64,000 nt of DNA from Diploscapter coronatus (taxonomy: Eukaryota > Nematoda > Chromadorea > Rhabditida > Rhabditidae), in assembly GCA_964036155.1 (NCBI GenBank), contig OZ038423.1, positions 69,765,249 to 69,829,248 on the forward strand. The letters run 5' to 3'. The translations under genes and the position numbers were made by a program. Positions within the stretch are counted from its first letter, which is position 1. Every line of letters begins with the position of its first letter. Under the pieces are notes generated by a model that was given only the letters and a program-made list of their open reading frames with translations, ran no database searches and had not been told where the DNA came from. This document shows positions 1 to 57,750 of this stretch, in pieces.

Positions 1-2481
1 GATTCGGAATCAGAATCCGCTGTTCTGCACACTTTTGCACATAACAAAGGGACAGAAGTGTGTTCTTTCTCAAATTTACGTACTGAAGAATAGACCCTGA
101 AAACTGACTGGCATGATTTAATAAATGATTTGAAACCTTTTAAATGGACCCAAATCTCAAATTGGCTAATAAAGCGCAACAATTGGGCCACGAGGATCAA
201 ACTTTAAAGACCTAAACATAGATTTTAGGTCTAGGGCTATTTTAAACTATGTCAAACTGAAATTGAAGTTATGTCGAAGTTGAAATTAAATTTAAAAAAT
301 GGGGGTAGCTTAAGATAGTAATTGTCTTCAAAGGATCACTATTTAGTCCGACAAAGTTAGGGCTGGCAGAAATTTTATATGGACTAGTATGGATTAAGTT
401 CAGATCCATATTCGAATTATAATTGACTTTAAATTTGGTGCTAAAATTAAATTTCTAAAAATAAAGTAAAGTTAAAGTCACGACAATAATAATTTTGAAA
501 GGCTATGACTGAGTCCGAGGAAATAAAATTGACGAAAATTTATAGCATTACGTGCGGGGGTGGGGGCGAGAGAAAGTCCGTGATGCACCAAAACTCCACA
601 AGCTGACTGTTAAGATGCAAAATCTCTCAAGGAATAAATAAAGGACGAGCCTAAGAAAGAAAGGATATTGATGACTCTGTGTGTTGTGCTTGGCTAGTGA
701 AAGAATGCCAAGGAAGGAAAATGGGCATAGGAAAAACGCTAAAGCTCAGAGGCGAGGAAGCTGAATTCATAATTATTTTTATTTCCTTATTGAAAAATTA
801 ATTCAAAATATAAAGAAAACTAGGTACTTTTCAACAAAATCTGAGCACTTTTTATATGATTTATAGGAAAAGTACTCAAAAGCTATTCAAATTTAAGTTT
901 TATAAAGAAAAAGTTAAAGTAATGAAAAGTGAGTTCATAATATTCCCACTTCGTTTCCTGATTGAGAATTCAATTTCTTAATAAAAAAGTTGGCAGGAAG
1001 TACTTTGTCGTAATTTCTTTAGGGTAAAAAATCTTTGAGAATTTAGGAATTCGAAAATTTTTTCTGAGAAATCTAGCTTCCAACCTTTGAACGTGCCATT
1101 TTGGTCCCGGAAAAATTGGAAAAGAAGGAAATCATTGCTTCTAAACGTGACAGATTCGTGTCAAAAATTTACGACAAAGTTGGACTTCATCGTGAAATTT
1201 AGACTTCCAGAAAAAGCACGCGATTTAGTAAAGCGAAAAAAGGAAAAAAGAGATATTTGATATTGTTGCATGATGTTATGAATAATAGAAAATATATAAT
1301 AGTTTAAATTTAACTAAAAATCGAATAAATGGCAATAGATTATTATAGAATCTCTTCATTCTAAATTTAAAAATTATTATTTTGAAATGGCCAGTTTAAA
1401 TTAAATAAAAGAACTAACTAGCAATATTCAAGCTTAGTTACTATGCAACTCAAATATAACGACATGTGAAAAGTGAGGATGAAACACTCTATTCTTCCTG
1501 AAGTTTCGCAACAATTTTAAGTAATTCCTTGAAGCGCTGAAAAATTTGCACTCTCGGTCTTTCAAAATGGTCAGAAAGGGCGACAAAAGATTTCAAAGCT
1601 AGCAACAATAAGTTTAAGAAGAAAAAGCAACAGAAAGTTTTCCAGCTTTTAAGCTAAATGGAAATGGATTAACCCGTGAGTTCAAATGTATAATGAACAA
1701 GTTTTTCTCGAAATTCAATTTTCTCGGACTTAGGTAATCCTTTATAACGTGAAAAATTTTACAAACTTTTCAGGGCAATTCGTATTTGTCGTGAGCTAAA
1801 ATGTCATGATGACATGACCTACTTTTCCCACGCTATTTCTTCTTACCTTTATCCTTATCTTGTTATCTATAACTCACGTCATCACAACAAACACAAGTTT
1901 CTCTTACAAAGAGCCTGTCTTAATTATTTCTTCTTGAACGAACACAGTTCCTTCTTCTGTCTTCAGCTTATCCTTGTCATCAGGTCACCAATCTGATATT
2001 TGTAAGCTCACACTTGAATCTCAGTCAACTTAACATAAATCAAAGTTTATTCAATGAATTGGAAAAGCGACCTATTTCAAGCAAGCAACAGCAACAGAAT
2101 ATCTAGCTGGCCGAGAAGAAGAGAAACATGAGCATTTTTCTAGAGAAGCAGAGAAATAGAAAAATATGTCTAAATTTACGAAATAATTCAAAATACAGAA
2201 ACAAGGTATGGATTCTCTCACACTGCTATATATTTTGAAAAATTTACCTTGAAATTCATCAATGGATTGAAATTACTATGAAATAAATATTAGATTTGGT
2301 TACAGAATTTTTTAAAGAAAATATTTTAAAGAATATTTTAGTTGCAATTATCCCTTATCACTTTTGGATGTCTTCGAGAGTTGTCTGTATCATGTTTATT
2401 GAAATTTTATTAATATTCGAATAAAGATAATAGTCATAAAATATAATACGTCATATAGAAGAGCTACATGATATTAAACTA
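1..2481. other. Intergenic, no gene seen
   Basis: AT-rich DNA with only short chance reading frames. I see no exon with family resemblance, no RNA gene and no clear repeat. It lies beyond the 3' end of the Hsp70-Kelch gene, so part of it is that gene's 3' untranslated region. Confidence 0.6.
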
Positions 2482-5276
2482 TTATTCAACTATTAATCGT
2501 CCCACTATTCTCCATTTATCCGCTTGTGGATCGTATTCTTCGATTGAATCACAAACGTTTTCACGTCCAATTTTTTGAAATCTAAATTAACAAGTATTTC
2601 GTATAAAGATATGCAAAATCTCAACTTACCCTCCGATTGCATACAATTTTCCGTTAGCGACAATGAGCGAATGATAAAATCTTGCATAATTCATATCAGC
2701 GATTCGAGAAATTCGACTGTCAACTGGAGCTGAGGGGTCGAAACACAGACAGGATTTGAATACTTTATCACTAAATATGAATTTTCAATCAGTGAACACT
2801 AGCAAAATCTACATATCATATCCTCCAGTTATATAAATTCTTCCATTTAGCGACGCGACTCCGAATAAATCTCGTCTTTCTGGAATCTCTCCAATTTCAA
2901 TCCATTCCTGTTCATCGTCTGATAATCGATATATCTTATTAGCATTCCATCCATCAATAACTGAATATCCATAATTACAATAACGAATATGCTATAATGT
3001 GACCGTATAAAATTTCATCGCATGTTATTGTTTGAACATAATTAATTGGAAAAGGAAAAGCAAATCCTGTTTGCCATTTTCCATCTATTAGAACCTGAAT
3101 AAATTATTTCATGGACTTTCATTTGATCTTCCTACATCAACTCGATTCGTATCTTGATATGTTTCAGGTTCCCATCCACCCAAATAATACAATTTGTCTT
3201 TGAAATAAGCCATAGATGCATGCCTACGCCATTCAGGAGGATCTGGACCTGTAAAATTATTTTAATCGATCATTCATGGATTTGTTGATAAGACCTTCGG
3301 AAATTTGTCGAGTATTCAAGTCATATATTTCGAATGATTTCTTTCCGTCGCTAATTCCAAAAATCTGAAACATAAGAGATTATTCAAAATAACTAACATA
3401 AGAATTTACTTTATTCTTTGTAGTTGCTACTTGAAATGGCACATAACAACTGTGGAATCTTGCAATCTCTTCGACTGAAAAATTATTAGAATTGAACAAA
3501 CATATCCTTCCTTCCTCTTCGTCATTATTTAAATATGAATCTAAATTATAATAAATTATTTTGAATCTTTTATTCCGTTAAATGTATTCTTATTTCTTAC
3601 GGTAAAACAAAACTTTAGGTGGATCATTAGAGAAACTATTTTCACCAATTTGCAAATTATTGATATTTCGGGCTAATTCATTCATTGTATTATTAATCAA
3701 TGGGGTCTCAATTCCTTTCTGAAATTATCATTCCCATTTTGTAATGAGTTATTTATTTTCAAACCTCCAAAGCATCTGCAATAATCGCAGCTCCATGAGC
3801 TACAGCCTCTTCAGGATTAACATTGTATCTCAATCTTGTCAGGCCAAATTTATGCGACAAAAGTTCTTGAATTTTTGGAATTCGAGTTGATCCACCAACC
3901 AGAATCTATAGATATTCATTGAAAAGCATATCAGAGTCTTGCTTTTTCTAATAATAAAATTACCACATTATCAATTTGTTCTGCTGAAATTTGTGCAGTT
4001 CGTAGAGCTTTTTCAACCATTTTCATCGCTTTATCGAATAAATGTTCGCAGAGTTGGTTGAAGTTAGATCGCGAAATTTTCATACTCACGCTTGTATCAT
4101 TACCAATATCCAGCTGCAAAATATGAATTTCACTGCAAAATCAATAAAATTAACATTTCTTACTTTAACATTGCATGATTCCATTTGAGATGATAGAGAT
4201 TCTTTCGCTTCTTTGCACGCTCTCCGTAATTGTCTCATCAAATCTGGTCGTTGTGACATATCATAGTTGTTCGATTTTTTGAATTCTCCGATTACGTATT
4301 TCATTATTTTTTCGTCGAAATCTTGGCCGCCTAAAATTCGGATAACAATTTCTTCATTAATAATTCTAAACCTAAGTGACAGTCACTAGTTACAGCTTTT
4401 ACCCGAATTTCTCCGTTGTCTATTTCAGCGACGCATATATCAAGAGTCCCTAAATAAAATGATGAATGCACGAATTTTTAGCTAAATGCCTCCTCCGAAA
4501 TCGAAGATTAAGATTTTAGAATCTCCTAATTTAGCTTTATGATTGTAAGCAATTGCAGCTGCAGTAGGTTCGTGTAGTAAATATTTCAATTCAAGTCCAG
4601 CCAATTCGACAGCCCTTTTCGTGGCATCTATTTGTGTTTCGTTGAATAATGCAGGGATTGTAACCACTGCGCCGGTCACTTTCGTGTTTAAATATTGCTG
4701 CAGATATAATTTTCTTACAATTATATTCACAAATTCATCAACTAACCTCTGCAGCAGCTTTCAAACTCTTCAGAATTTCAGCTGAAACTTCTTCTGCCTT
4801 TATAAACCGTTCATTTGGTTTGCCTTTGTTCAGCACATATCCACAAAAATCCTAAAATTAAGGTTTTAAAGAAAGTGATAAATACCTTGAATATCTTACA
4901 TCTCTCGTGTCGACGTTAAATGTCCAAAGATTTCGATTCCCAGCAATGGGCAAATTAGCCAGAAATTTCCAGCCAATCAAACGTTTTGAATCTGTTTTTA
5001 ATTAATTTTATCATAACTTTTCAGAAATATAATTTTTCTTACCGTATAGAATATTCGACGGATCTGTATTGCAGCTCAAAGCGGGATGACCGACTAAAAT
5101 TCCCGATTCACAATATGCGACTGCTGAAGGAATTGTGAATCTGCCTAAAATCTTAGAATATTCTTAGAGAATAATAAAAACAGACCATCATCAGAAACAA
5201 TCACAACAGGCTTTCCGTCTTCAATTACAGAAACACACGAATATGTGGTACCCAGGTTGATACCAATATAGACCAT
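2482..5276 (-). CDS. Hsp70 ATPase domain fused to Kelch propeller
   Basis: Predicted 681-residue protein from 17 exons. Residues 1 to about 380 are an Hsp70 nucleotide-binding domain: phosphate-1 motif [35 protein letters not shown] (phosphate 2) and [11 protein letters not shown] (adenosine motif). Instead of the usual peptide-binding domain and lid, a 40-60 residue linker leads into about five Kelch repeats (residues about 435-681), with motifs [25 protein letters not shown] and [15 protein letters not shown]. Exon phases agree across the junction (TTT TAC C joined to AT TCA), so one protein is read through. The phosphate-1 Asp is Asn here, while the Glu and both Asp of the phosphate-2 region are kept. 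One intron (4450-4489) has a GC donor, forced by FGGG-TLD. Start: the Met just before the ATPase domain. By inference, an ATP-dependent adaptor with Kelch-mediated binding. A false join of two genes is unlikely, because there is no stop or start codon between the halves. Confidence 0.85.
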
Positions 5277-5876
5277 CTAATTTAATTAATTTAAATATTT
5301 CTTTCGAGAAAGGATAAAGAATGGTTACATTAATATGGAATCTCTTGAAAAGAAAACGATAACCTAAGAACGTGAAACGTTTGCCAGATATTCGCTAACA
5401 CTGGCAAGACTAAGGAAATTTTGAATAAAATTGTCACTAATAAAGCGATGCTTGAGTAATAAAAATGGAATAACGACACAATTTCGCACTTGAAACATTT
5501 GAATTTTATGCAGATAACATAAGGAGCGACAAAGTTATGTGTAATTTACAGTATTCCACTGTCTATCTTCATGATATTTCGGTTTAGACGACAAGACAAA
5601 TCATGTTCCAAACACAATTGTGTGATAGTCCTAACATCTTGTTCCAACTTATTTAAAATCAAATAACGTTTTATTGTCGACTTTTATGACTACGAGAGAA
5701 CCCTGAATTAGCACAAACTCTGAAGAATAAACAAAAGTGTTCGAATTCAATATTTGCCAAGATTAATAAAACTAATCATCTCGCTGCCCGAAGGACAAAG
5801 AGCGAGGGTCGTATTTGGGTAATCAATAAAAGTAGTAGGTTAATAACATTGAAAAGGTTTTTCAAATTCAAATGAG
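5277..5876. other. Spacer upstream of Hsp70-Kelch gene
   Basis: AT-rich sequence holding the promoter side of the minus-strand Hsp70-Kelch gene. I see no heat-shock element array and no exon. Confidence 0.5.
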
Positions 5877-6239
5877 ATGATTGGAAATTGGTTCACTTCT
5901 CACTTTTGCTATCAACAAAAAGAAAACAAAATCGAGTTTCCAGAACTCGATCCTAACGCACCGTTAGGAAAAACGAACTTCAGATTCGTAACGGCATGTC
6001 CGAAAGCCCTCGAGTGTGAAAAATCAAGCAATTTGGTGGGGCACACTTTGGTAGCTTCCCTTGTAAATCAAGAAAATAGCCTGGGAGTTAGTTGTGCTGC
6101 AGGGTTGGTGATTGCTTCATCGTTTGTCTTCAACTTCGAGAAAATCGCACTCCCTTCGATCGTCGGATGCCTTCTTTTCCTCATCAAACCGTTCATTCAC
6201 ACATGGGATTTGCTGAATCTTTCGATTACTAGTCATTGA
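5877..6239 (+). CDS. Uncertain single-exon ORF, 120 codons
   Basis: An uninterrupted ATG-to-TGA frame of 120 codons in AT-rich DNA, with a hydrophilic N-terminal half (FPELDPNAPLGK, ACPKALECEK) and a hydrophobic C-terminal half (VSCAAGLVIASS, IVGCLLFLIKPF). No family is recognised and no intron is evident, unlike every confident gene here. It could be a small membrane protein, a processed copy or a chance frame. The opposite strand has a shorter hydrophilic frame in 6100-6235, which could be an exon instead. Confidence 0.2.
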   Translation: MIGNWFTSHFCYQQKENKIEFPELDPNAPLGKTNFRFVTACPKALECEKSSNLVGHTLVASLVNQENSLGVSCAAGLVIASSFVFNFEKIALPSIVGCLLFLIKPFIHTWDLLNLSITSH

Positions 6240-7794
6240 AAGGCTGAAACAATAGTGAAAGTATTTCTCCACCGAAATTCAATTAAAAATGGAAAAATAA
6301 CGAAAAAAATATTAAAAAAAAACGAAAACTTGATGAAAAATAATCTGTCCAGAAACGTTCACGTTATTTACTAGAAAACCTTACGACATTTACCAGGATA
6401 GCGCACGTCATTTAAGCTCACGACGTCCCGTAATTACGACATTTACGAATTGCCACTTTTAGTACTTCATTCTATCCCTAAGAATTGGCCTTCATGCTAG
6501 AAGATTATAAATTCCACGGTGAATATCGAATTTATTAAAGTATTTTTTATTTAGATCATTTTTCCTATAAATTTTATATCCAATTGCAGTAATATCACAT
6601 TTATTATGAAATATAATGCGATTTTTCTCACTTTCGCTATTATTTCCATTTCAGATAACTCCATTTTTCTCTCCTACAACCGAAATCGAAAGTGATATGA
6701 TAAATTTCACTCTCTCAGGAGGAGAAAAACGGATATAGGGTAATTGATATCTCTTTTTTATCTTTATCCTTTATCGACGAAAACGCTTTCCCTTTCCTCT
6801 TTTTGAAATCAAGACTAGTTTTGACATAGACAGTCATTCTTTAGATATCTTAATTCCTCCTAAATCGCTCAATCTCTAAAACAATGATAAGTCTCTCAAT
6901 CGAGATTTCGCTAAGCTTTATCTTTCTTTGGAATCTCTTAAAACCCTTTACTATTTCCTAGAAATTCCTAGAAAAGCTAGTTTTTCCAAGTTTTTTTCTT
7001 AGACGAAAGAAGAAAGTCGAGAAATTTTTCCGATGACTGGGCGTTTCTCAAAATTTTTCGAGAAAAATCAACGACAGCGACTGGATTAATTGTTTAACGA
7101 TTAACGTAGAGTGAATGCATGCATTTGAAAATCGATATCACTTTAAAAATGATGATGAAATTTCAATTTATTAAATTGCACCAAGAGATGTTCAATGTCT
7201 AATTAATTAATTAATTTGCAAAATTTACAAACAATTTGAATTTGAAACACATAAAATATATGAGATTTAAGTAGAGGTTCAGTGAGCGTTTTTGTGAAGA
7301 TGTTTAAGATAAAAAATAAATTATACGATAAATTTTTGCGACGCGTCTTAATTCCAATAGAAAAAGATGGTATTTTTGAGATTTTCAGAAAATTTTTGAA
7401 AATCGCCAAGAATACCTAGTTTTGAGCAAAACTTGTATAAGAGACCATCGCCCCGTTGGATTTTTTGAAAGAAAAAAATAAATTGAGAAAAGGGAGTTAA
7501 TTATGTTTTTTGAAGGTAGTTGATCGTCATCAAGATGAATGTTGTCGTCGTTGGGATTCGGAATCCGAAGGGTGGTTTCGACGTCGGAAGGATACTGCAA
7601 TTAGTTTAATAATCATCTTCTAAGTAGGGTAATTAATAAAAGTACTTAGCACAACAATAGGCGTTAGATTGTTGTAAAAGAAACTGGGTATATTTTATAG
7701 AAATTTTGCTTTTTGTTCTTGTAATGTATAAAATAGTCTAATTTACATATATACATTTTGAATTACTTAATAGAAATGCCGTACTTCATAAAAT
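6240..7794. other. Intergenic with one exon-like stretch
   Basis: Mostly AT-rich spacer downstream of the collagen. On the minus strand at about 7500-7603 a TTGCAG acceptor precedes a frame beginning YPSDVETTLRIPNPNDD, with higher GC and an acidic composition that looks exonic. I found no partner exon and call no gene. Confidence 0.35.
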
Positions 7795-10732
7795 TTATCG
7801 TCGGGTTCCGTCCTCGAAGAACACTCCGCCATCGATGGCGCAGTATTTCGGGCAAATTCCCTGAAATTTTGAAATTTCAATTCAATTGAATTTGAGATTT
7901 GTTCTTAACCAACCTTCTCTCCTGCTGGGCCTGATTCTCCTGGCTAAAATGAAATAGTTTAGATGTTCAAATAAAATTTTCCAATTTTAGATTAATTTTG
8001 AAATAAGATATAGCAATTTTCGGTATGAATTTTGAGCCATACCGGGCCGGGAGGTCTAAATTTGAGCCATTAAATGAATTTTTAGGATATATTAAATTTA
8101 CCCAGGCTGACCGTCGATTCCAGGGGGTCCATCCTAAAATATACACAAATAAATTACTTAGGAATAATTTCAGCGATTAATGATGACACGTACGGGTCCA
8201 GGAGGCTGAAATTGAGATTATTAAAATTCTGATAAATGGAATAAATTTAAATGGTACGCACTCCTTTGGGTCCGGCGGCTGAAATTTTTGTCATTAATTT
8301 TTTTTGTATTTTTAAAAACTCACGTCCAGGGGCTCCATCGTTGCCCGGTGCTCCAGCTAAAGTTTTTTTTAAGTCAGATAAAAATAAATCTAAAAATATA
8401 ATCGTCCATACGTGGTCCAGGAGGCTGAAATTCAATTATCAGTTAAAATTTTCTAGATTAAAAAAATATTCCTACTCCTGGTGGTCCAATGTCTCCCTAA
8501 ATGTTTAAATATATATTAAAAAATAAATTTAAATAAAATGCGCGTACTGGTTCTCCGGGTGCTCTAAAATGAATAGTTTAAGAATCTCGACAAAAATCTA
8601 TTTTTCACTAGACTTACCCAGGCGTCAGTGGCTCAGAGATAGCAGGAGTACCAGCATCGCCTATAAATATAAATATTGAAATTATTCTAGATCCTAAAAA
8701 TTACCTTGAGGTCCAGGCTGACCGGCCTCGCCCTTAAAAATGCTTAGTTTAGAATGACACGAATCAAAAATTGAGCAAAATCTCGAACCAGCGGTCCAGG
8801 AGGTCTAAAATAATTTAAGTTAATGGTGAATTCTTAGGAATATCATCAATTTTACCCTCTGGGTCCTGGAGCTCCAGGAAGTGCATCATTTCCAGGTCTT
8901 CCGGGTGCTAAAATAATTAAATTATACGAAATATTTACTCTATTATATGAATGTCTTTTCGTGTTTGGACTGGAAAAAAGCTGATCTTTGTCGTTTTAAA
9001 TTTGAAATTTATGCCAGATATTTATAATTTAGGTAAAAAACTCACTTCCGCTCTCTCCGGGTTCACATGTAATTAAATTATGAATTCAGGTTCAATTTGA
9101 GGTTCAATATGCGCGATTTTCCATTAAAAATAACGTGTAAAGTCTACGTATTATCTCAAATGAAAAATCGCGCATATTAAATCGAGTTGAAAATGAATTC
9201 ATTCGAAGGGATTTCGTACCAGGGCTGCCAGCTAAAAATATTCAAATTATTTGTATATTTGCTTAAATATAGTTTAAATATTTTACGGGGTCCGGGTGGT
9301 CCGCTAAAATTAAAATAATGATTGATTTTCACTAGAAAAAATGCGATAATCTCTTACGGTGGGCCAGGCGGGCAGGGTTTGCCTTAAATCATTAGTTTAA
9401 ACCTTAATTTAGATCTAAGCCATACATGGAGGTGGTGTAGTAGGTTCGCAAGGGGCTTGGGGTGGCTTTCCGGGTGCCCCATGAAATTTAATATTATTTT
9501 AGGGTCTGAAGTTGGGAATCTAAAAATTCGCTTACTGGAGTTCCAGGCGCTCCCTGTAATTTAAATACTTGATTTTTAAATGATTTAATTCGGGCTTACA
9601 GGCTTTCCAGGTCGACCTTAATAGTCCATATAATTCATAGTCAATTTAAATTTAATTGAAGTAAACTGTAGCTAATCGATTCAATTGAATTCAAATTGAC
9701 TAGGAATTAGAATCATACCGGGCTTCTGAAATTAAACAATTTTTAAAAGTGACATTTTATTTAACATTGTAGAGATCTTACGCCAGGAGGTCCCTAAAAT
9801 ACATGTATTAATAAAAAGAAATTTATTTTAATAGAATCAAAGGTTTTAGTGTAAAATACCTGAGGGCCAGGTGGTCTGAAATTTTAAAATGAATATTTTT
9901 CAAACTTTCAAATTTACCCAGGAAGGCAGCATCCTTCGCATTGCAAGTTGGCTGGTGCATTAACTTCTGGTCCGGTTGGGCCACTACCGTAGCCGGACTT
10001 AAATAAATTATTGATTATTTCAATTATTTCTTCTAGATTTAACCTGTCTGGCAGTACGATTTTTAGGTAATGATCCAAACGCTGACGATGCTGATTTCAT
10101 ATAATTCACTTCCAAGAATATATCTTTTGCTGATCCCTAAAATAATCGAATTTTTAGGAAAAGTTTATTATTTAAATTTTATTCTATTTTCTACTTAAAA
10201 GTGGTAAATTAGTGGTATAAACTATGAATAACTTGCAATTTTATTGTGATTTTTGAGCAGGTATTTAAAGAATAGTATATGGTTTTGCTAAGTTGTTACT
10301 TATGTTAATTTTAATACCCACCTTGCAAAAACTGAGTTCATGTTCCATTTGCCTTCTAACGTGGCTAACATAATTGTAGACCATCGGCAAAGTCATTACA
10401 ACTGACAAAACTGCCACTATAGAAAATGATACAGCCGCGTAGGCCACGAATTTATAGGCCTGAAAATTACATTGTTCAAATCTTAGGGAAATATTATGAA
10501 GACCATTTCTCAGATAAACCTTATTACTAAAAATATGATCAAATTTAATATGAAAATAAAGTTTTTTCATGAAAATCAGCTTTTTAATAACCTTTTACAT
10601 TAATAATCAAGATATGATGATCAAAAGTACAAAATTTTGTATGAAAATAATCCATGTTTCGCAAGGGTCAATCTTTTCAAAAAGTAAAAACTCTAATTTA
10701 CCTTCATACGGCCGTCGGATTCCATTTTCATT
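7795..10732 (-). CDS. Nematode cuticle collagen, SQT-1/ROL-6-like, 28 exons
   Basis: Predicted 310-residue structural protein of the extracellular cuticle. Exon 1 (MKMESDGRMK) and exon 2 give the nematode cuticle collagen N-terminus: AYKFVAYAAVSFSIVAVL membrane/signal-anchor segment, then HVRRQMEHELSFCK. A subtilisin-type site (NRTARQ) follows, then a Cys cluster (CEGCC), a Gly-X-Y domain broken at PCEPTTPPPCKPC and TPAISEPLTP, and the C-terminus CPKYCAIDGGVFFEDGTRR with stop. That tail and the Cys spacing resemble SQT-1/ROL-6. The Gly-X-Y domain is split over about 24 exons, many of 12-18 nt and one of only 7 nt (KP plus one base of G). Phases agree throughout. Two exons (starting at 9480 and 9066) follow introns that end in AT rather than AG. 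Family collagen genes in C. elegans usually have 1-4 exons. The product is certain; a few micro-exon boundaries are less so. Confidence 0.93.
9067..9222. repeat. Hairpin-forming intron in the collagen gene
   Basis: Two arms of nearly 48 nt (about 9081-9128 and 9154-9200) are inverted copies, sharing ATGCGCGATTTT and flanking sequence, with a loop of about 25 nt. The hairpin fills most of a collagen intron, and that intron ends in AT instead of AG. It may be a small MITE or an RNA structure. Confidence 0.6.
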
Positions 10733-16049: not shown

Positions 16050-19000
16050 TTATTCTTCATCGAGAACATCGTTACGCGAACCGGCCCTTCGCGAATTGAC
16101 TACCGTTGTTGACATCTTAAATTTAAAATAAATTATTATGAAAATACCTTAATTTAAATATTTTAAGACCTAAATTTAAACATATTTAAATTTCTTTTTT
16201 AATAGAAATTTTACCGAATGTGCCAATCCGCCCCTTCCAAACACTGCGCTTCCACTCCGCGACGCCAATCGCATTTTCTGTAATCAAATTTAAAATTGCT
16301 CTAAGCCAAGCTTTAATTTCGACAATCGTTAATATGCTATAAATCCTAATATCTTAGCACTAGTATTAACTCGCTAACGAATATGGTACCTGCAGGGCAT
16401 TCTCAGCTGCGTCCGCACGCTCCTCGGCGTCTTCCAATGAGTGTTGCAGTTGGCGATACTTGGTAAGGTTGCCGGCTGCTAACGCTTCCTGAAAAAGCGT
16501 TATTTACAACAAAAATGTTCTTTTTAAAAACGCTTTTTTTTAATTAATTTTTTTTTTGTAAATACTCACCGCGTCATCGATCTGTCGCTTATAAGTCTTG
16601 ATCTTCTGTTGCAGTTTCTCAATCAAGTCATACATTCGCTCAGTGGCCTTCTTGTCTTCGTCGACCTAAGTGCGGCGTCATTTATTTATTTCATATGACG
16701 CCATCATCTTTTCTGATGAATCTTCGCTACCTGGAACTGCAACTCCCTGCAGCGTCTGTCCTTGTTCCTCAGAGTCTTCGCGGTTTCGGCGTGTCGTCTC
16801 TGCTCGCTGTCCAATTCAGACTCCAAGTCGTGAACTCTAAATCAAGACGTCACCATTTATAGCAGAAAAAGAATATCTTTAACCTAGAGTCAAGTTTAGC
16901 GATGGCTTTCTTGCCGCCCTTCATCTGGTTGGCTTCAGCTTCATCCAATCGAGTTTGAAGGTCCTAAATTTTGATGGCGTCACAATCCTTTTTGATATAA
17001 CGTCAATGGCGTCATATTGGACTTACCTTAATATGCGATTCGTTGGCCTTCTTGGCGCGCTCCAGATTGGCAGAATGCTCCTGTTCTGCACGGAGCTCGT
17101 CGGAGATTTTCGCTGTGTCCATCGCGCACTAAAATGGCACCTTTTATTTTTTATATACGCGTTTTAAAGGCGTTATTTTTAATGATTAAAATGATATATC
17201 TGGATGATCCTCTCCCCGATCATGCCCTCAAAAGGGTTTCCATTTGAGGTGGCATCTTCCTCCTCGTTCTCTTCCTCAGGAATTATCCAAGATTTCCGCT
17301 TATTAATATTCCGGACCGGTTTTACTCGTAGCATAGTAAAAATAAAATATAGACTAATATTAAAGCTTAGAAATCGATAATAGGGCTTAGAACTTAGACT
17401 AGTTCCAACTACTAAGGGAGTCAAGTACCAGGACCGATTTTCTGCATGCTTGTTTGCTCTGGATATCTTTTGGATCTCGGGAATCCCCGTTATCTTTTCA
17501 AATCCACTTTTTCTCAAAGCTCTCTATTTTCCTTCGATCACTAATCAGTCCCATCCCAGTGTCTTGATGGGATCTATTTGCCCACCCTTTTTACAGTTTC
17601 AAGATAATCCTTCATGTTGAACACGTCTTCAAAGATCATTTCTGAAAAAATACCTTTTTGGCCCTGTCTTCCGAGTTCTTGGCCTCATTCAAGGCATCAG
17701 AAATTTCAGAGTGGAGTTGCTAAAATTTAGATTTTTTCACAATCTTTTCTTGGACTTACCTGAAGTTCGGACTCCAACTTTCTCTTGACCGAGGTCAATC
17801 CCATGTTCTGAGCGACCAAGTCATTGAGGGCTTCCTTGTGCTCAGCAGCCAACAACTCTGCCTGTCTTCTAGATCGTTCGGCCTGAAGAAGATTGGACTT
17901 GCTAAAAAGTCTGAAAGGAAAAAGGTCGTACCTGCTCGAATCCAACCGCCATGTCTTCCTTCTCCTGTTGCAGAGCTTGAGCTCTTCTCTCAGCGGTTGC
18001 AGCGTGTTCCCTGGCTTCGTCACGGTGTCGGGCTTCGTCCTCAGCCTGCATTTGGAGCTCTCTAACAGTTTCCTGGTATCGTTTCAGATTCCTCTGGGAC
18101 TCCACATTGGCTTTGTTGGCGTGGTCCAAAGCAATTTCGAGCTCCTAAATTGAATGCGACTTTTTTAAACCTCGAATTTCCCCATACATTGATATCACCC
18201 TCCAGCTTCTTCTTCATCCTGAGCAACTCAGCTTTTCCTCTGGTCTCATTCTCGAGAGTAGCCTGCATCGATTCAATAGCCCTAGCGTGATTCTTCCTGG
18301 TGGATTCGAATTCTTCTTCCTGAATTCCACAATGCTGATTTTTCCAAATAACAAAATTACCTTCTCTTGAAGCCGCTTTTCGATTTCGGATCTGATTTGG
18401 CTGACTTCCACCTGGGCTCTCAGAACCTTCGCTTCCTCTCCTTCCAAAGCAGCTTCGGCGTCATCCAGTGCTTGTTGAAGTTCTTCCTTCTCAATCTCGA
18501 GCTTCCTTCGGAGTTTCTGCAGATCGTGGACAGACTTTCCTCCCTCGCCCAATTGGTCGGCGATATCCTTCAGCTCTTGTGCCAGGGCGCGATTTTCTCT
18601 CTTGACTGCTTCAGTTTGCTCGTGGGACTCTTCCAATTGATTCCTCAGCCGGAACGTCTCAGTTGCGGCAGCTCTGGTCTCCCTCTGGCTCTGCTCGACT
18701 TCAGCCACCAGCGCTTCGCACTTTCTCTTCCACTCGTCGATGACCTTGTCGAAGCCTTTCTGCTTCTTCTCCAAAGAGGTGGCGATTTGGTTGGCTCTAA
18801 AATGTCAAAACCATTTGTTTCATAAATGTTTAGTTAGTTTCAATGTCAAAAATATTTTTTGATCGAATTCACACCTGTCAGCATCCACCTGTGCGTCTTC
18901 CAGCTCGTGCTGCAAGCGCTGTCTGGTCTTGTCCAGGGTAGCGATCTTCTGGTTGGCCTGCTCCAAGTGCTCTTGCATTTCTTGGACCTAAAAATTGGTA

Positions 19001-27762: not shown

Positions 27763-30222
27763 TTTATGAAATCTCTGAAACTAAATACTATTATTCAACT
27801 AAATCCTATGATTATCCCGGATAATCAGATTTGGGTAAATAATAGTGAGGTTAAGAAAAATGAAAATTGAAATGATATGTGATAGACCGTGAAATGGGAT
27901 AAGGTTTGTTAGAGAAATGAAATTCAGATCTAAAATGAAGAAATAGAGACAAAGACAAGAAAAGATAGGGTTGCCTAGGAATATGAAACGACAACAAAAG
28001 TGATAACTGAAAAGATAGAGATAAGGCAATGATAAGAGAGAGAGCAGAGGGCAGAAACCAATTACGGTGGGAAAGAGTTAGTGAAAATTCAGACTTGATA
28101 TGATTAGAATAGGGCCCGCAAGCGATTTTGCGAAATTGAAGAGAGCGTGTTAAGCCTATGCCATTGAGCTGGGCTTATCATGGGAAGATGTGGGCAGTTT
28201 TTCTTTTTCCAAGCCGATGCCCCTATCAAAAGTGATGAATTGTGTGCTTTTGGAAAAAGCGACTTTCAAGCAGGTTGGCGTCGTTTGTCGTTGATCATTT
28301 TTAAAACTTTTTGTTCTAAAATATGCAGCACACTTAGATCTATAATATACTAAGTGCTTTGACGCGGATCCCTTTTTTGAGTAGAAAAATTTTAAAAAGA
28401 AAGAAAAACGCGAAATTTGCTTGACAAGCAAACTTCAAACGGCTCTAAAATATTTCTAGATTGTTTTTACAGCGTTTAATGATGCAAATCGTTCACCCAT
28501 ATGCTCATTTGAGTATTTATAAAAGAAAATTTTCCGCGATATTGTCTAATTAACGGAATAATTAATAGGGAGCAAAAATGAGACCAATTTTTGCTTCGCA
28601 AAGTGAGCGGAACTTGCGGACTCTAGATTAGAACCTAACTTAATTTTGCTCCACTTTCATAACTCATTATCAATTCGAGAAATTCGAGATTTAGTTAATT
28701 TAATTAGAAATTTAAAATGCATCATTTTATGCAAAATGAAGGTCTAAAGTTGTACTTGCAAAATAAACCCGTTTTTCTGGGTGTGCATAATATGGGTCTT
28801 GTGACTGATCCACAATCAAATTTGAATATATCATTCCTTTGATCTTAATGATCTTTCCCAAATTAGCCTGGATCAAACAATGCGCCAATCCAAATAGCCA
28901 AAATCGATCTCACCCAACTCTAAAATTCATTCCACCAATCTTCATCTTCAGCCAACCGGCTTAACTTCCTCCAAATCAGGACTCAACTTATAAAAGCGCC
29001 GACGGGCATACAGGCTAATAGATTGTGATAAGCGAAACATTGTGGCTTGACTTGAACTCGACAGATCTGAACCGGAACCAAGCATAAGCATACAAAATCA
29101 ACTTACTCTCTCATATCAAACCTTTTCAAATTCTCTCTTTCTCACATCCATACACACACTTCTCTATACACAATTCGTGCAAATAAGTTCAAGTTTAATT
29201 CTGTGAGAATTTCTCGTATTAATCAGAAAATAGCCTGACTATTGTACAAAGGTCTTGTGTGAAAAAGGTGCTTAGTTTTTATGTGAATTGGTATATAACA
29301 ATTATGCAAAAAATGTGAAGAATGACTGGGGTTTGTACTAACATAAAAGTACATTCTGGCATTAATCAATTAAAATTAATTATTAAATAATTAGGAGTAG
29401 AGTCATGGCAACGATTAAAACATAACAGGGATGAGTTATGAAGTGAAATGTTAGGCTTCCTCGGATAATACTGAATGCAGAAGACCTTGAAATGCGAACT
29501 AATGAAGAGAGATATATGGGGATTTCATATATCCCAAAGAAACATACAAAGACAGCAATTAAAACGAACAGATATACATTCAGGCGTGAGACATAGATTT
29601 GGATATAGTTAAAAGAACAAAACTAACTAAATAATATAACATTTTATTCGATCATCGCAATGTAATTTGTGACAATAAATCGTCGAGCTTCATAATATTA
29701 TGAAATCCCTAAACTTTTGAGATGCTCATTTATACATAGAATGATAGTCTTATCACAGAGCACCATATCAAAATTATCACTAAAGTGAATGATATAATAA
29801 ATATATAATGGCAGCACGCATTTTGGAAATGCTAATATGATATAGTAACTCAGAAAAGAACCTCCAAATCAAATAAATATGAACCCAAATTTCCCTTGAG
29901 CTTCATATTTTAACGTTAAAATATTTAAATTGGGGTTTTTCATTGGATTTAGGGTACTTTCTGATTTATCATATAATATAATAATGACTAGAATGACATG
30001 AAATCTCAGGAGATTGACTATTTAGTAGTAGCTACCGTAATGATGATATAAGGCTAAATTAACAAAAATAATAAATAATAGGTAGTAAGTAGGAGCTAAA
30101 ATGAAATAAATTTCACTATCATAAAGTAATGAAAATGGGATACCAATTATTTCCGATTCATTTTATTAACTGAATGCTACCTACTACCTATCGATTATTA
30201 ACTTTATTAACGGCCATTTAAG
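27763..30222. other. Intergenic, weak inverted repeat near right end
   Basis: No exon seen in about 2.4 kb. Near 30,066-30,205 two arms containing TAGGTAGTAAGTAGG and its approximate complement (CTACCTACTACCTA) face each other, perhaps an old MITE. CT-rich stretches occur near 29,100-29,180. Confidence 0.45.
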
Positions 30223-56926: not shown

Positions 56927-57750
56927 TTGAACATTTTATGGCGGAAAAGTCAGTGAAAAATTAGCGACATTTTCCTGCGAAAGACAGATGCCAATTCCTA
57001 TCTGTTACAGACAAATCGATATACGAGAGAAGATGGGCAAAATGCTAGAAAAAGAGAGGAAGAAGGGGGAAGTCAATCAACCATACAAAATATGCAGTCA
57101 TCGTTTAACATGAATACTCGAGCCTCGAGGTCAAAAAAAAGTTGATATTCATTCAAACAAAAATATGCATGGTTTAAAAATATTAATAAAGATATTCGGA
57201 AATATTATAAATGCCCTAAGTCGGGGAATCATTCCATGTACAATATTTTTACGACGCTCGATAAAATTAGCCGTGTAGGAACTCAGGATGAAATTCAAAA
57301 TTGTGTTATTGTTGATTGGGGAGAACGTCGATATTCAAAAATTACGTTACTCATCTCACGTTTCTCTTATACGCGACTCACTATTTCGCTTCTCCAAATT
57401 CGATTTCTAATTTGGGGAATGAATATCGACTCTCTTCAATCAACGATATATTTATTTATTGTTGTTTTTTTCCTAAATGAATTATGTCGTATTATTTATT
57501 ATCTCTATGAAAATGATACAATTTCAGAGGCAAACTTAAACCCGTAGCTAAAATGATAGAACTTTGATGAAATTCTGAAATCGTTATTTGATTGTTCGGC
57601 AATATATACTTTGATGCAAATTATATAAGTTTTGAGATTTAGAGGTAGAAATGCATAAGTATTCAGGTTAACTATTGTTCATGGATAATTAATTTACTCT
57701 GATTTTAATAGCGCAATTTTGTAAAATGACGTTAAGAAAATGTTAAAATA
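56927..57750. other. Intergenic, one doubtful plus-strand frame
   Basis: A 103-codon plus frame (57236-57547, ending NELCRIIYYLYENDTISEA) is open but has no recognised family or supporting exon; I give it about 0.15. The rest is AT-rich. Confidence 0.4.

What the first reader, a model, noticed from the sequence alone, without database searches (positions are those of the whole stretch)
2482..5276. Hsp70 ATPase domain fused to a Kelch propeller in place of the substrate-binding domain
The sequence shows a complete Hsp70 nucleotide-binding domain running, through phase-matched exons and no stop or start codon, into about five Kelch repeats. The peptide-binding domain and lid are absent. Known Hsp70 relatives either keep, shorten or lose the substrate domain; I do not know a described Hsp70-Kelch chimera. 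By inference, ATP-driven conformational change could be coupled to a Kelch-selected client, a new chaperone or adaptor design.
Basis: partly seen in the sequence, partly recalled or inferred. Interest (0 to 1): 0.88.

Follow-up and report, generated by a model that had tools for sequence, protein, structure and literature searches.

The report
Hsp70 head on hypervariable Kelch receptor
A nematode gene joins the ATP-using half of the Hsp70 chaperone to a propeller-shaped binding domain whose binding face differs sharply between copies, and it belongs to a very large, recombining gene family that puts the same propeller on other heads as well, which suggests a repertoire of made-to-order protein catchers rather than an ordinary chaperone.

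Summary
Seventeen exons give an open 681-aa protein: a full Hsp70 ATPase domain (residues 4-378), no Hsp70 substrate domain, a linker, then a Kelch propeller. It is not a lone oddity. Twenty of 20 related loci read from the same genome (a Diploscapter nematode, judging by its relatives) carry the same join, 16 of them clean; one is the likely allele. A Kelch-exon pattern has 1,112 hits in this two-haplotype assembly. The same Kelch cassette also sits behind F-box-like, kinase and second-Kelch heads. Variation concentrates in the BC and DA loops, the face that binds clients in KEAP1-type proteins, while strands and the ATPase domain are conserved. Two diverged ATPase lineages share one Kelch pool, so cassettes are exchanged. 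Best reading: a recombining client-receptor repertoire with interchangeable effector heads, one an Hsp70 ATPase. The published account reads the Diploscapter Hsp70 expansion as heat adaptation and does not mention Kelch. Main doubts: the join crosses a short intron that opens with an in-frame TGA, so RNA must confirm the splice; positive selection on the loops is not proven; the window copy has D10N in the ATP site.

The parts
3765..5276 (-). Exons 1-9: Hsp70 nucleotide-binding domain, residues 1-378 (5186-5276, 5043-5144, 4900-4991, 4747-4851, 4490-4697, 4372-4449, 4164-4330, 3964-4113, 3765-3905)
   Evidence: spliced model; Pfam HSP70 4-378 E 1.1e-108; PDB Hsp70 NBDs
5256..5258 (-). Codon 7 (Asn), equivalent of ATP-site Asp10: GINLGTT here, Asp in the other 20 copies compared
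4450..4489 (-). GC-AG intron between FGGG and TLD
3719..3764 (-). 46-nt intron at the NBD/linker junction; starts GTTTGA, so unspliced RNA would read ALEV-stop
3601..3718 (-). Exon 10: linker ([23 protein letters not shown]...) and first Kelch strand (KVLFY)
   Evidence: codons 379-401: pN/pS 0.48 in frame against 1.04 and 0.89 in the other frames
2482..3540 (-). Exons 11-17: Kelch propeller, residues 418-681, stop at 2482-2484 (3410-3540, 3295-3364, 3136-3248, 3004-3094, 2813-2960, 2630-2770, 2482-2581)
   Evidence: AlphaFold2 and Foldseek of D. pachys homologues, not of this protein
2482..5276 (-). Whole Hsp70-Kelch gene; likely allele at C1:74.63 Mb (L025), 86% identical protein, open reading frame intact

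Best explanation
This is a member of a superfamily, seen so far only in Diploscapter, in which a hypervariable six-bladed Kelch cassette serves as the client receptor and is mounted on interchangeable heads: an Hsp70 ATPase domain (this gene), an F-box-like head (ubiquitin-ligase adaptor) or a protein kinase. Shown from sequence: the join and its repetition in many copies; variability concentrated in the BC and DA loops; purifying selection on the ATPase part and the Kelch strands; loss of Hsp70-lineage structure in the Kelch part; the same cassette behind other heads. Inferred: the Kelch top face grips particular proteins (foreign, selfish or aberrant). The Hsp70 head then recruits the J-protein, BAG and Hsp110 network to the caught protein for extraction, disaggregation or hand-over to degradation, as the F-box head would recruit the SCF ubiquitin ligase. 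Recombination among copies renews the repertoire.
For: 20 of 20 NBD-anchored loci show NBD, linker and Kelch in one model; 16 of 20 have no stop, no frameshift and no intron over 1 kb before residue 672; a second, tandem copy inside L024 is clean too. Kelch-exon pattern 1,112 hits, F-box exon 414, linker exon 194, each 0 with the pattern reversed. 15 of the 21 listed F-box hits on C1 below 39.67 Mb have an exact Kelch hit 790-844 nt downstream. Kelch variability, 34 copies: BC 1.90 and DA 1.60 bits against AB 0.61, CD 0.82, strands 0.39-0.69; 34 of the 40 most variable sites are BC/DA; 0 of 263 label shifts reach the observed mean; with AlphaFold2 strands BC 1.66, DA 1.24, AB 0.58, CD 0.45. 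pN/pS: NBD 0.31 [0.27-0.36], Kelch strands 0.40 [0.31-0.52], BC+DA 1.21 [0.96-1.53]. Separation of the two NBD types is 0.08-0.31 in the NBD and at most 0.014 beyond codon 450. Both alleles open. K71, E175, D199, D206 kept in 21 of 21, D10 and T204 in 20 of 21.
Against: No RNA or protein evidence. The junction intron carries an in-frame TGA just after the donor dinucleotide in 19 of 20 loci, and 4 of 20 have GC instead of GT. BC+DA pN/pS has a 95% range that includes 1, is 1.15 [0.89-1.50] on gap-free sites, and its range touches that of the opposite face, AB+CD 0.68 [0.45-1.07]: loss of constraint is not excluded. Between the two alleles BC+DA is 0.63. F-box Pfam hits are below the curated cut-off. 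67 of 100 listed exact Kelch hits have none of the listed heads upstream, though those lists are capped; 7 of 15 Kelch-anchored loci show no head in the DNA held. The window copy has D10N, which may weaken its own ATPase. No client, location or partner is known.
Confidence: 0.55

Rival explanations
1. Two products, not one: the ATPase part ends at ALEV-stop as a free NBD, and the Kelch exons belong to a separate downstream message.
For: The intron at codon 378 opens with an in-frame TGA (GTT TGA, GCT TGA or GTA TGA) in 19 of 20 loci, with GC donors in 4 of 20. Kelch-exon hits far outnumber hits of the NBD and linker patterns. Three Kelch loci start with the linker exon but show no NBD in the DNA held. 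Only 42 of 100 listed linker exons have a listed NBD exon 9 within 900 nt upstream; both lists are capped.
Against: Linker codons 379-389, upstream of the first common Met, are constrained in the NBD frame: pN/pS 0.49 [0.28-0.75]; for codons 379-401 the other two frames give 1.04 and 0.89; 4 of 21 copies have no Met in exon 10. 18 of 20 junction introns are 35-47 nt, too short for a transcript end and a new start (inference); the other two are 530 and 540 nt. An exact AATAAA is not kept in all copies (read by eye). D. pachys gene models join the same exons, though those models skip Kelch exons and look ab initio.
Confidence: 0.15
2. Neutral or decaying amplification: a duplicating Kelch cassette with an unconstrained loop face; the Hsp70 join is a by-product.
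For: 1,112 Kelch-exon hits; BC+DA pN/pS range includes 1; some loci broken (L040: 3 stops and 2 frameshifts, L032 and L037 one frameshift each).
Against: 17 of 20 fusions have no stop or frameshift; strands (0.40) and NBD (0.31) are under purifying selection; both alleles are open.
Confidence: 0.15
3. Heat-adaptive chaperones, as the published account of the Diploscapter Hsp70 expansion proposes.
For: PMC6872716 section 8 (read): 59-gene Diploscapter cluster, independent expansion, inferred heat adaptation. ATPase residues are kept.
Against: No substrate-binding domain or lid in the genes examined here, so they cannot refold unfolded chains in the usual way; variation sits on the Kelch client face.
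Confidence: 0.07
4. ATP-driven allosteric machine: ATP turnover opens and closes the Kelch grip.
For: Intact catalytic residues in most copies; linker coding sequence constrained.
Against: Canonical hydrophobic linker absent by eye (rows); two unlike linker types occur, and some type II genes carry the type I intron and linker; the linker stretch has low confidence in both AlphaFold2 models of homologues.
Confidence: 0.15
5. Antidotes in toxin-antidote selfish elements: the Kelch face binds a cognate toxin.
For: Fast-evolving nematode F-box proteins act as antidotes in C. tropicalis (PMC12680543, passages seen).
Against: No linked toxin gene was looked for; a parthenogen gives such elements little to drive against (recalled biology).
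Confidence: 0.06

Closest known systems
Cytosolic Hsp70 (HSPA1/HSPA8), nucleotide-binding domain
   Same: Whole NBD 4-378 and catalytic residues; fold of a D. pachys homologue
   Different: Substrate-binding domain, lid and usual linker absent; Kelch propeller instead
BTB-Kelch (KLHL/KEAP1) and F-box-Kelch ubiquitin-ligase adaptors
   Same: Six-bladed Kelch used as client receptor; the variable BC/DA face is the one that binds peptides in KEAP1, KLHL3, KLHL12 (pocket positions recalled; related structures)
   Different: Head is an Hsp70 ATPase in this gene, not BTB or F-box; cassettes recombine and their exon has over a thousand hits in the assembly
Expanded F-box and MATH adaptor families of Caenorhabditis
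   Same: Large families with fast-evolving binding domains (PMC5392922 and PMC12680543, passages seen)
   Different: Other binding folds (DUF38, MATH and others); no Hsp70 or kinase heads known to me
Diploscapter Hsp70 'cluster III' (59 genes)
   Same: May be the same kind of D. pachys genes (inference; not matched by gene name)
   Different: Published as heat-adaptive chaperones; 'kelch' has 0 occurrences in the main text

Membership tests
Hsp70 chaperones | Actin-like nucleotide-binding domain of about 380 residues | tested here: met
   Pfam 4-378 E 1.1e-108; PDB NBDs over 3-375; Foldseek of homologue P0001
Hsp70 chaperones | Catalytic residues (D10, K71, E175, D199, T204, D206; numbering recalled) | tested here: met
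   Met by the family: K71, E175, D199, D206 in 21 of 21; D10 and T204 in 20 of 21. The exception at D10 is the window copy itself
Hsp70 chaperones | Substrate-binding beta domain and helical lid | tested here: not met
   HSP70 profile match ends at 376 of 599; Kelch follows
Hsp70 chaperones | Conserved hydrophobic interdomain linker (recalled motif) | tested here: not met
   Residues 365-419 of 21 copies printed and read by eye
Kelch-repeat propeller proteins | Four or more Kelch repeats forming a propeller | tested here: met
   Kelch_1, Kelch_6 and Kelch_2 above cut-off; PDB matches; Foldseek of homologue P0002
BTB- or F-box-Kelch ubiquitin-ligase adaptors | BTB or F-box head that binds Cullin3 or Skp1 | tested here: not met
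   Window gene has the Hsp70 head only; sister genes have an F-box-like exon, Pfam E 2.2e-4, 0.0099 and 0.085, below cut-off; UniRef names D. pachys relatives F-box domain-containing
Diploscapter Hsp70 cluster III | Placement inside the published tree cluster | not tested
   Tree sequences not held; only text seen

The most novel reading that the evidence does not exclude
Diploscapter has evolved a modular intracellular recognition system: hundreds of recombining Kelch receptors with a hypervariable client face, exchanged by gene conversion among three kinds of effector head (Hsp70 ATPase, F-box ubiquitin-ligase adaptor, protein kinase), so one recognised protein can be unfolded, ubiquitinated or phosphorylated according to the head. 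In effect it is a combinatorial innate repertoire in which a chaperone ATPase is one of the effector arms.
Probability: 0.35. Interest if true: 0.95.

Novelty: new variant of a known kind. Interest (0 to 1): 0.82.

Why it matters
No Hsp70 is known to me with a Kelch receptor in place of its substrate domain, and outside Diploscapter none turned up in the searches made here (for proteins; for papers). If right, it (1) shows the Hsp70 ATPase can be re-aimed by an unrelated binding domain, (2) reveals a very large hypervariable receptor repertoire with interchangeable effector heads in a parthenogenetic animal, and (3) calls for a fresh look at the published claim that Diploscapter amplified Hsp70 to resist heat. 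It also makes a question testable: what does an Hsp70 ATPase do to a client handed to it by a specific receptor?

Tried and rejected
Assembly artefact: rejected, since the join recurs at 20 of 20 loci and in the likely allele. Lone chimera: rejected. Frameshift between EILY and the next Kelch strand: an apparent gap at 2992-3003 is resolved by a 43-nt GT-AG intron 2961-3003. Whole-genome PF00012 count: not completed. Hsp70-Kelch in other taxa: only D. pachys proteins pair PF00012 with Kelch domains among the 120 listed of 3,029 hits, among 37 hits and among 27 hits. These searches reach close relatives only, so absence elsewhere is not proved. Literature, listings seen unless said otherwise. 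One search found 0 papers holding Hsp70-Kelch or its three variants; one search found 2 papers with Diploscapter and Kelch, neither on this by title and start of abstract; one search found 25 papers, 15 listed, none on this by title. The library holds open-licence PMC papers only.

Bias to note: the 20 loci were the best NBD hits (ranks 2-5 and 7-22 of 150 listed, 329 candidates), so lower-ranked NBDs may differ. In L024 the aligner modelled the neighbouring tandem copy (rank 6), not the anchor; the anchor copy was modelled later and is open with the same join but is not in the counts. Loop classes were drawn by eye from the Kelch motif after I had seen the variability; one search repeats the test with AlphaFold2 strands for 14 strands only. 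L032, L037, L038 and L040 (frameshift, stop or long bridging intron) were kept; without them the entropies (30 copies: BC 1.87, DA 1.59, AB 0.63, CD 0.80) and ratios (BC+DA 1.18 [0.94-1.52], NBD 0.32) barely move.

Full report
What is there. The minus strand from 5276 to 2482 encodes one gene of 17 exons and 16 short introns (40-60 nt), 681 residues, no internal stop. Fifteen introns are GT-AG and one, 4450-4489, is GC-AG. Residues 4-378 are a complete Hsp70 nucleotide-binding domain; the profile match ends at 376 of 599 and no substrate domain follows. Residues 379 to about 411 are a linker. From there to the end runs a Kelch propeller. The window sits in an assembly of 169.7 Mb in three contigs, two of 87.7 and 82.0 Mb. 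The nearest named proteins are from Diploscapter pachys, so I take the organism to be a Diploscapter and the two large contigs to be homologous chromosomes; neither is proven.

It is a family. I wrote a spliced aligner, checked that it returns the window gene exactly, and ran it on 20 loci chosen by their NBD exon. All 20 hold NBD (375-378 of 378 residues aligned) and Kelch in one collinear model with nearly the same intron positions. Seventeen have no stop or frameshift; L032 and L037 have one shift each, L040 has three stops and two shifts. L038 (2.6 kb, at codon 522) and L040 (2.4 kb, at codon 401) need introns that may bridge two genes. That leaves 16 of 20 clean up to residue 672. Beyond it five loci (L026, L027, L033, L035, L036) needed improbable introns of 278 nt to 3.8 kb, so their last residues are uncertain. 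L037 and L042 have a 530-540-nt junction intron (one search lists them). L024 holds a tandem pair, both open with the same join. L025 on the other large contig aligns with window 1-6951 over 7.0 kb at 91.4% and is the likely allele; its protein is 86% identical and open. Pattern counts, both haplotypes together, at most three mismatches: Kelch exon 1,112, linker exon 194, a close NBD subtype 51, each 0 with the pattern reversed. These count exons, not genes.

Other heads. Fifteen Kelch-anchored loci sort as follows: two already counted (window and likely allele); one more NBD head (L020); three with an F-box-like exon joined in frame (L013, L014, L022); two tandem Kelch-Kelch (L019, L023); seven with no head seen in the DNA held, of which L015, L018 and L021 begin with the Hsp70-type linker exon. 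The F-box call is modest: Pfam F-box-like E 2.2e-4, 0.0099 and 0.085, all from position 1 of the model and below its cut-off; UniRef names several D. pachys relatives F-box domain-containing. An F-box exon pattern has 414 hits, 0 in the control. Of the 21 listed F-box hits on C1 below 39.67 Mb, 15 have an exact Kelch hit 790-844 nt downstream; so do 7 of 24 listed linker exons there (740-775 nt) and 3 of 6 kinase hits checked (1.3-1.9 kb). Seen the other way, 67 of the 100 listed exact Kelch hits have none of the listed heads upstream; all these lists are capped. Among exon-9 hits 42 of 149 have a listed linker exon within 900 nt downstream. D. pachys proteins P0003, P0047 and P0168 have kinase domains by Pfam joined to Kelch pieces, the latter two seen by eye.

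Where it varies. Over 34 Kelch copies, mean entropy is 1.90 bits in BC loops and 1.60 in DA loops, against 0.61 (AB), 0.82 (CD) and 0.39-0.69 (strands). Of the 40 most variable sites, 34 are BC or DA (75 of 264 sites). None of 263 shifts of the labels reaches the observed mean. With strands taken from an AlphaFold2 model of a D. pachys homologue the order holds: BC 1.66, DA 1.24, AB 0.58, CD 0.45. BC and DA loops lie on one face, the one that holds peptides in KEAP1-type proteins (recalled; relatives). pN/pS with site bootstrap, 21 fusions: NBD 0.31 [0.27-0.36], strands 0.40 [0.31-0.52], AB+CD 0.68 [0.45-1.07], DA 1.34 [0.99-1.72], BC 1.11 [0.80-1.55], BC+DA 1.21 [0.96-1.53], BC+DA gap-free sites 1.15 [0.89-1.50]. 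Loops against strands is clear; the two faces differ in entropy but their ratio ranges touch; whether the client face is under diversifying selection or merely free is not settled. Between the two alleles dN/dS is 0.31 (NBD), 0.39 (Kelch) and 0.63 (BC+DA).

Exchange. The NBDs fall into two types that differ by 0.311 between and 0.149 and 0.090 within. Their Kelch strands show no such split (0.138 against 0.123 and 0.139), and F-box Kelch domains are no further off (0.142, 0.141). Pairwise distances agree between the two halves of the NBD (r 0.87) but little between NBD and Kelch strands (0.36) or the two halves of Kelch (0.11). In 30-codon steps the separation of types is 0.08-0.31 up to codon 390, 0.03 over 391-450 and at most 0.014 beyond. 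L013 (F-box head) and L020 (Hsp70 head) share 23 identical codons across a hypervariable BC loop. dS is 0.74 in the NBD and 0.30 in Kelch of the same 21 genes. Gene conversion or repeated capture of Kelch cassettes is the simplest reading.

The weak point. The intron at codon 378 begins GTTTGA (12 of 20), GCTTGA (4), GTATGA (3) or GTTCGA (1); read through, 19 of 20 would give ALEV- or similar and stop, and 4 have a GC donor. GC donors also occur, less often, at other introns of these genes (1-2 of 20 each). Against a true end there: codons 379-389, before the first common Met, are constrained (0.49 [0.28-0.75]); over codons 379-401 the NBD frame gives 0.48 and the other two frames 1.04 and 0.89; and 4 of 21 copies have no Met in exon 10. 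The acceptor TTTCAG is kept in 15 of 20. I give the fusion about 0.85, and RNA can settle it.

Function. In the family the ATP-site residues are kept: K71, E175, D199, D206 in 21 of 21; D10 and T204 in 20 of 21. The window copy is the one with Asn at position 10 and may be a weak ATPase (effect recalled). The usual Hsp70 linker is missing by eye, so I do not adopt ATP-driven gripping by the Kelch part. The better supported picture is a receptor whose head brings in a machine: SCF for the F-box head, and for this one the Hsp70 co-chaperones that dock on the NBD (J-proteins, BAG, Hsp110; known biology). F-box and MATH adaptors are induced by Orsay virus and microsporidia in C. elegans, though not in virus-infected C. 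briggsae (PMC5392922, passages), and F-box proteins serve as antidotes in C. tropicalis (PMC12680543, passages). These are precedents, not evidence for this gene.

Against what is known. PMC6872716 (section 8 read; passages) reports a 59-gene Diploscapter Hsp70 cluster, with positive selection at its root, and reads it as heat adaptation; the word kelch does not occur in its main text. Of the D. pachys Hsp70-like proteins read here, many run from the NBD through the linker into Kelch pieces in their database models, though those models skip Kelch exons and look ab initio; P0047 instead continues into a longer Hsp70-like C-terminal part. If these are that cluster, which I could not match by name, the heat reading needs review.

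One search was made for it. Corrected: the L024 model is the tandem neighbour; the stop lies one codon after the NBD; junction intron lengths; the overlap of ratio ranges between the two faces; and the capped head counts are now told in full.

Noticed in passing
window 7767-8995, minus strand: Short reading frames rich in Gly-X-Y repeats, collagen-like, next to the gene (seen).
   Followed up: no
window 18214-18804, minus strand: 196-aa coiled-coil reading frame that looks like a myosin rod segment (recalled likeness).
   Followed up: no
window codon 7 of the gene, 5256-5258: Asn replaces ATP-site Asp in this copy only (1 of 21); the likely allele L025 keeps Asp.
   Followed up: partly
L011, L015, L017, L021 upstream of the Kelch exon: These headless Kelch loci share a similar upstream stretch (seen reading frames), perhaps a common regulatory or mobile sequence.
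   Followed up: no
L024-L043: GC donors look unusually common for an animal (introns 31, 113, 200, 226, 281, 378, 485; usual rate recalled).
   Followed up: partly
window 28411-28629 and 57308-57449: Short matches (76-82%) to locus L026 outside the gene: probably dispersed repeats.
   Followed up: no
D. pachys P0047 (988 aa): Database model joins a kinase, a Kelch piece and a longer Hsp70; may be merged genes.
   Followed up: no
C1:74.63 Mb and C2:69.77 Mb: The two large contigs align at 91.4% over 7.0 kb here, a very divergent allele pair if they are homologues, as one might expect of a parthenogen.
   Followed up: partly
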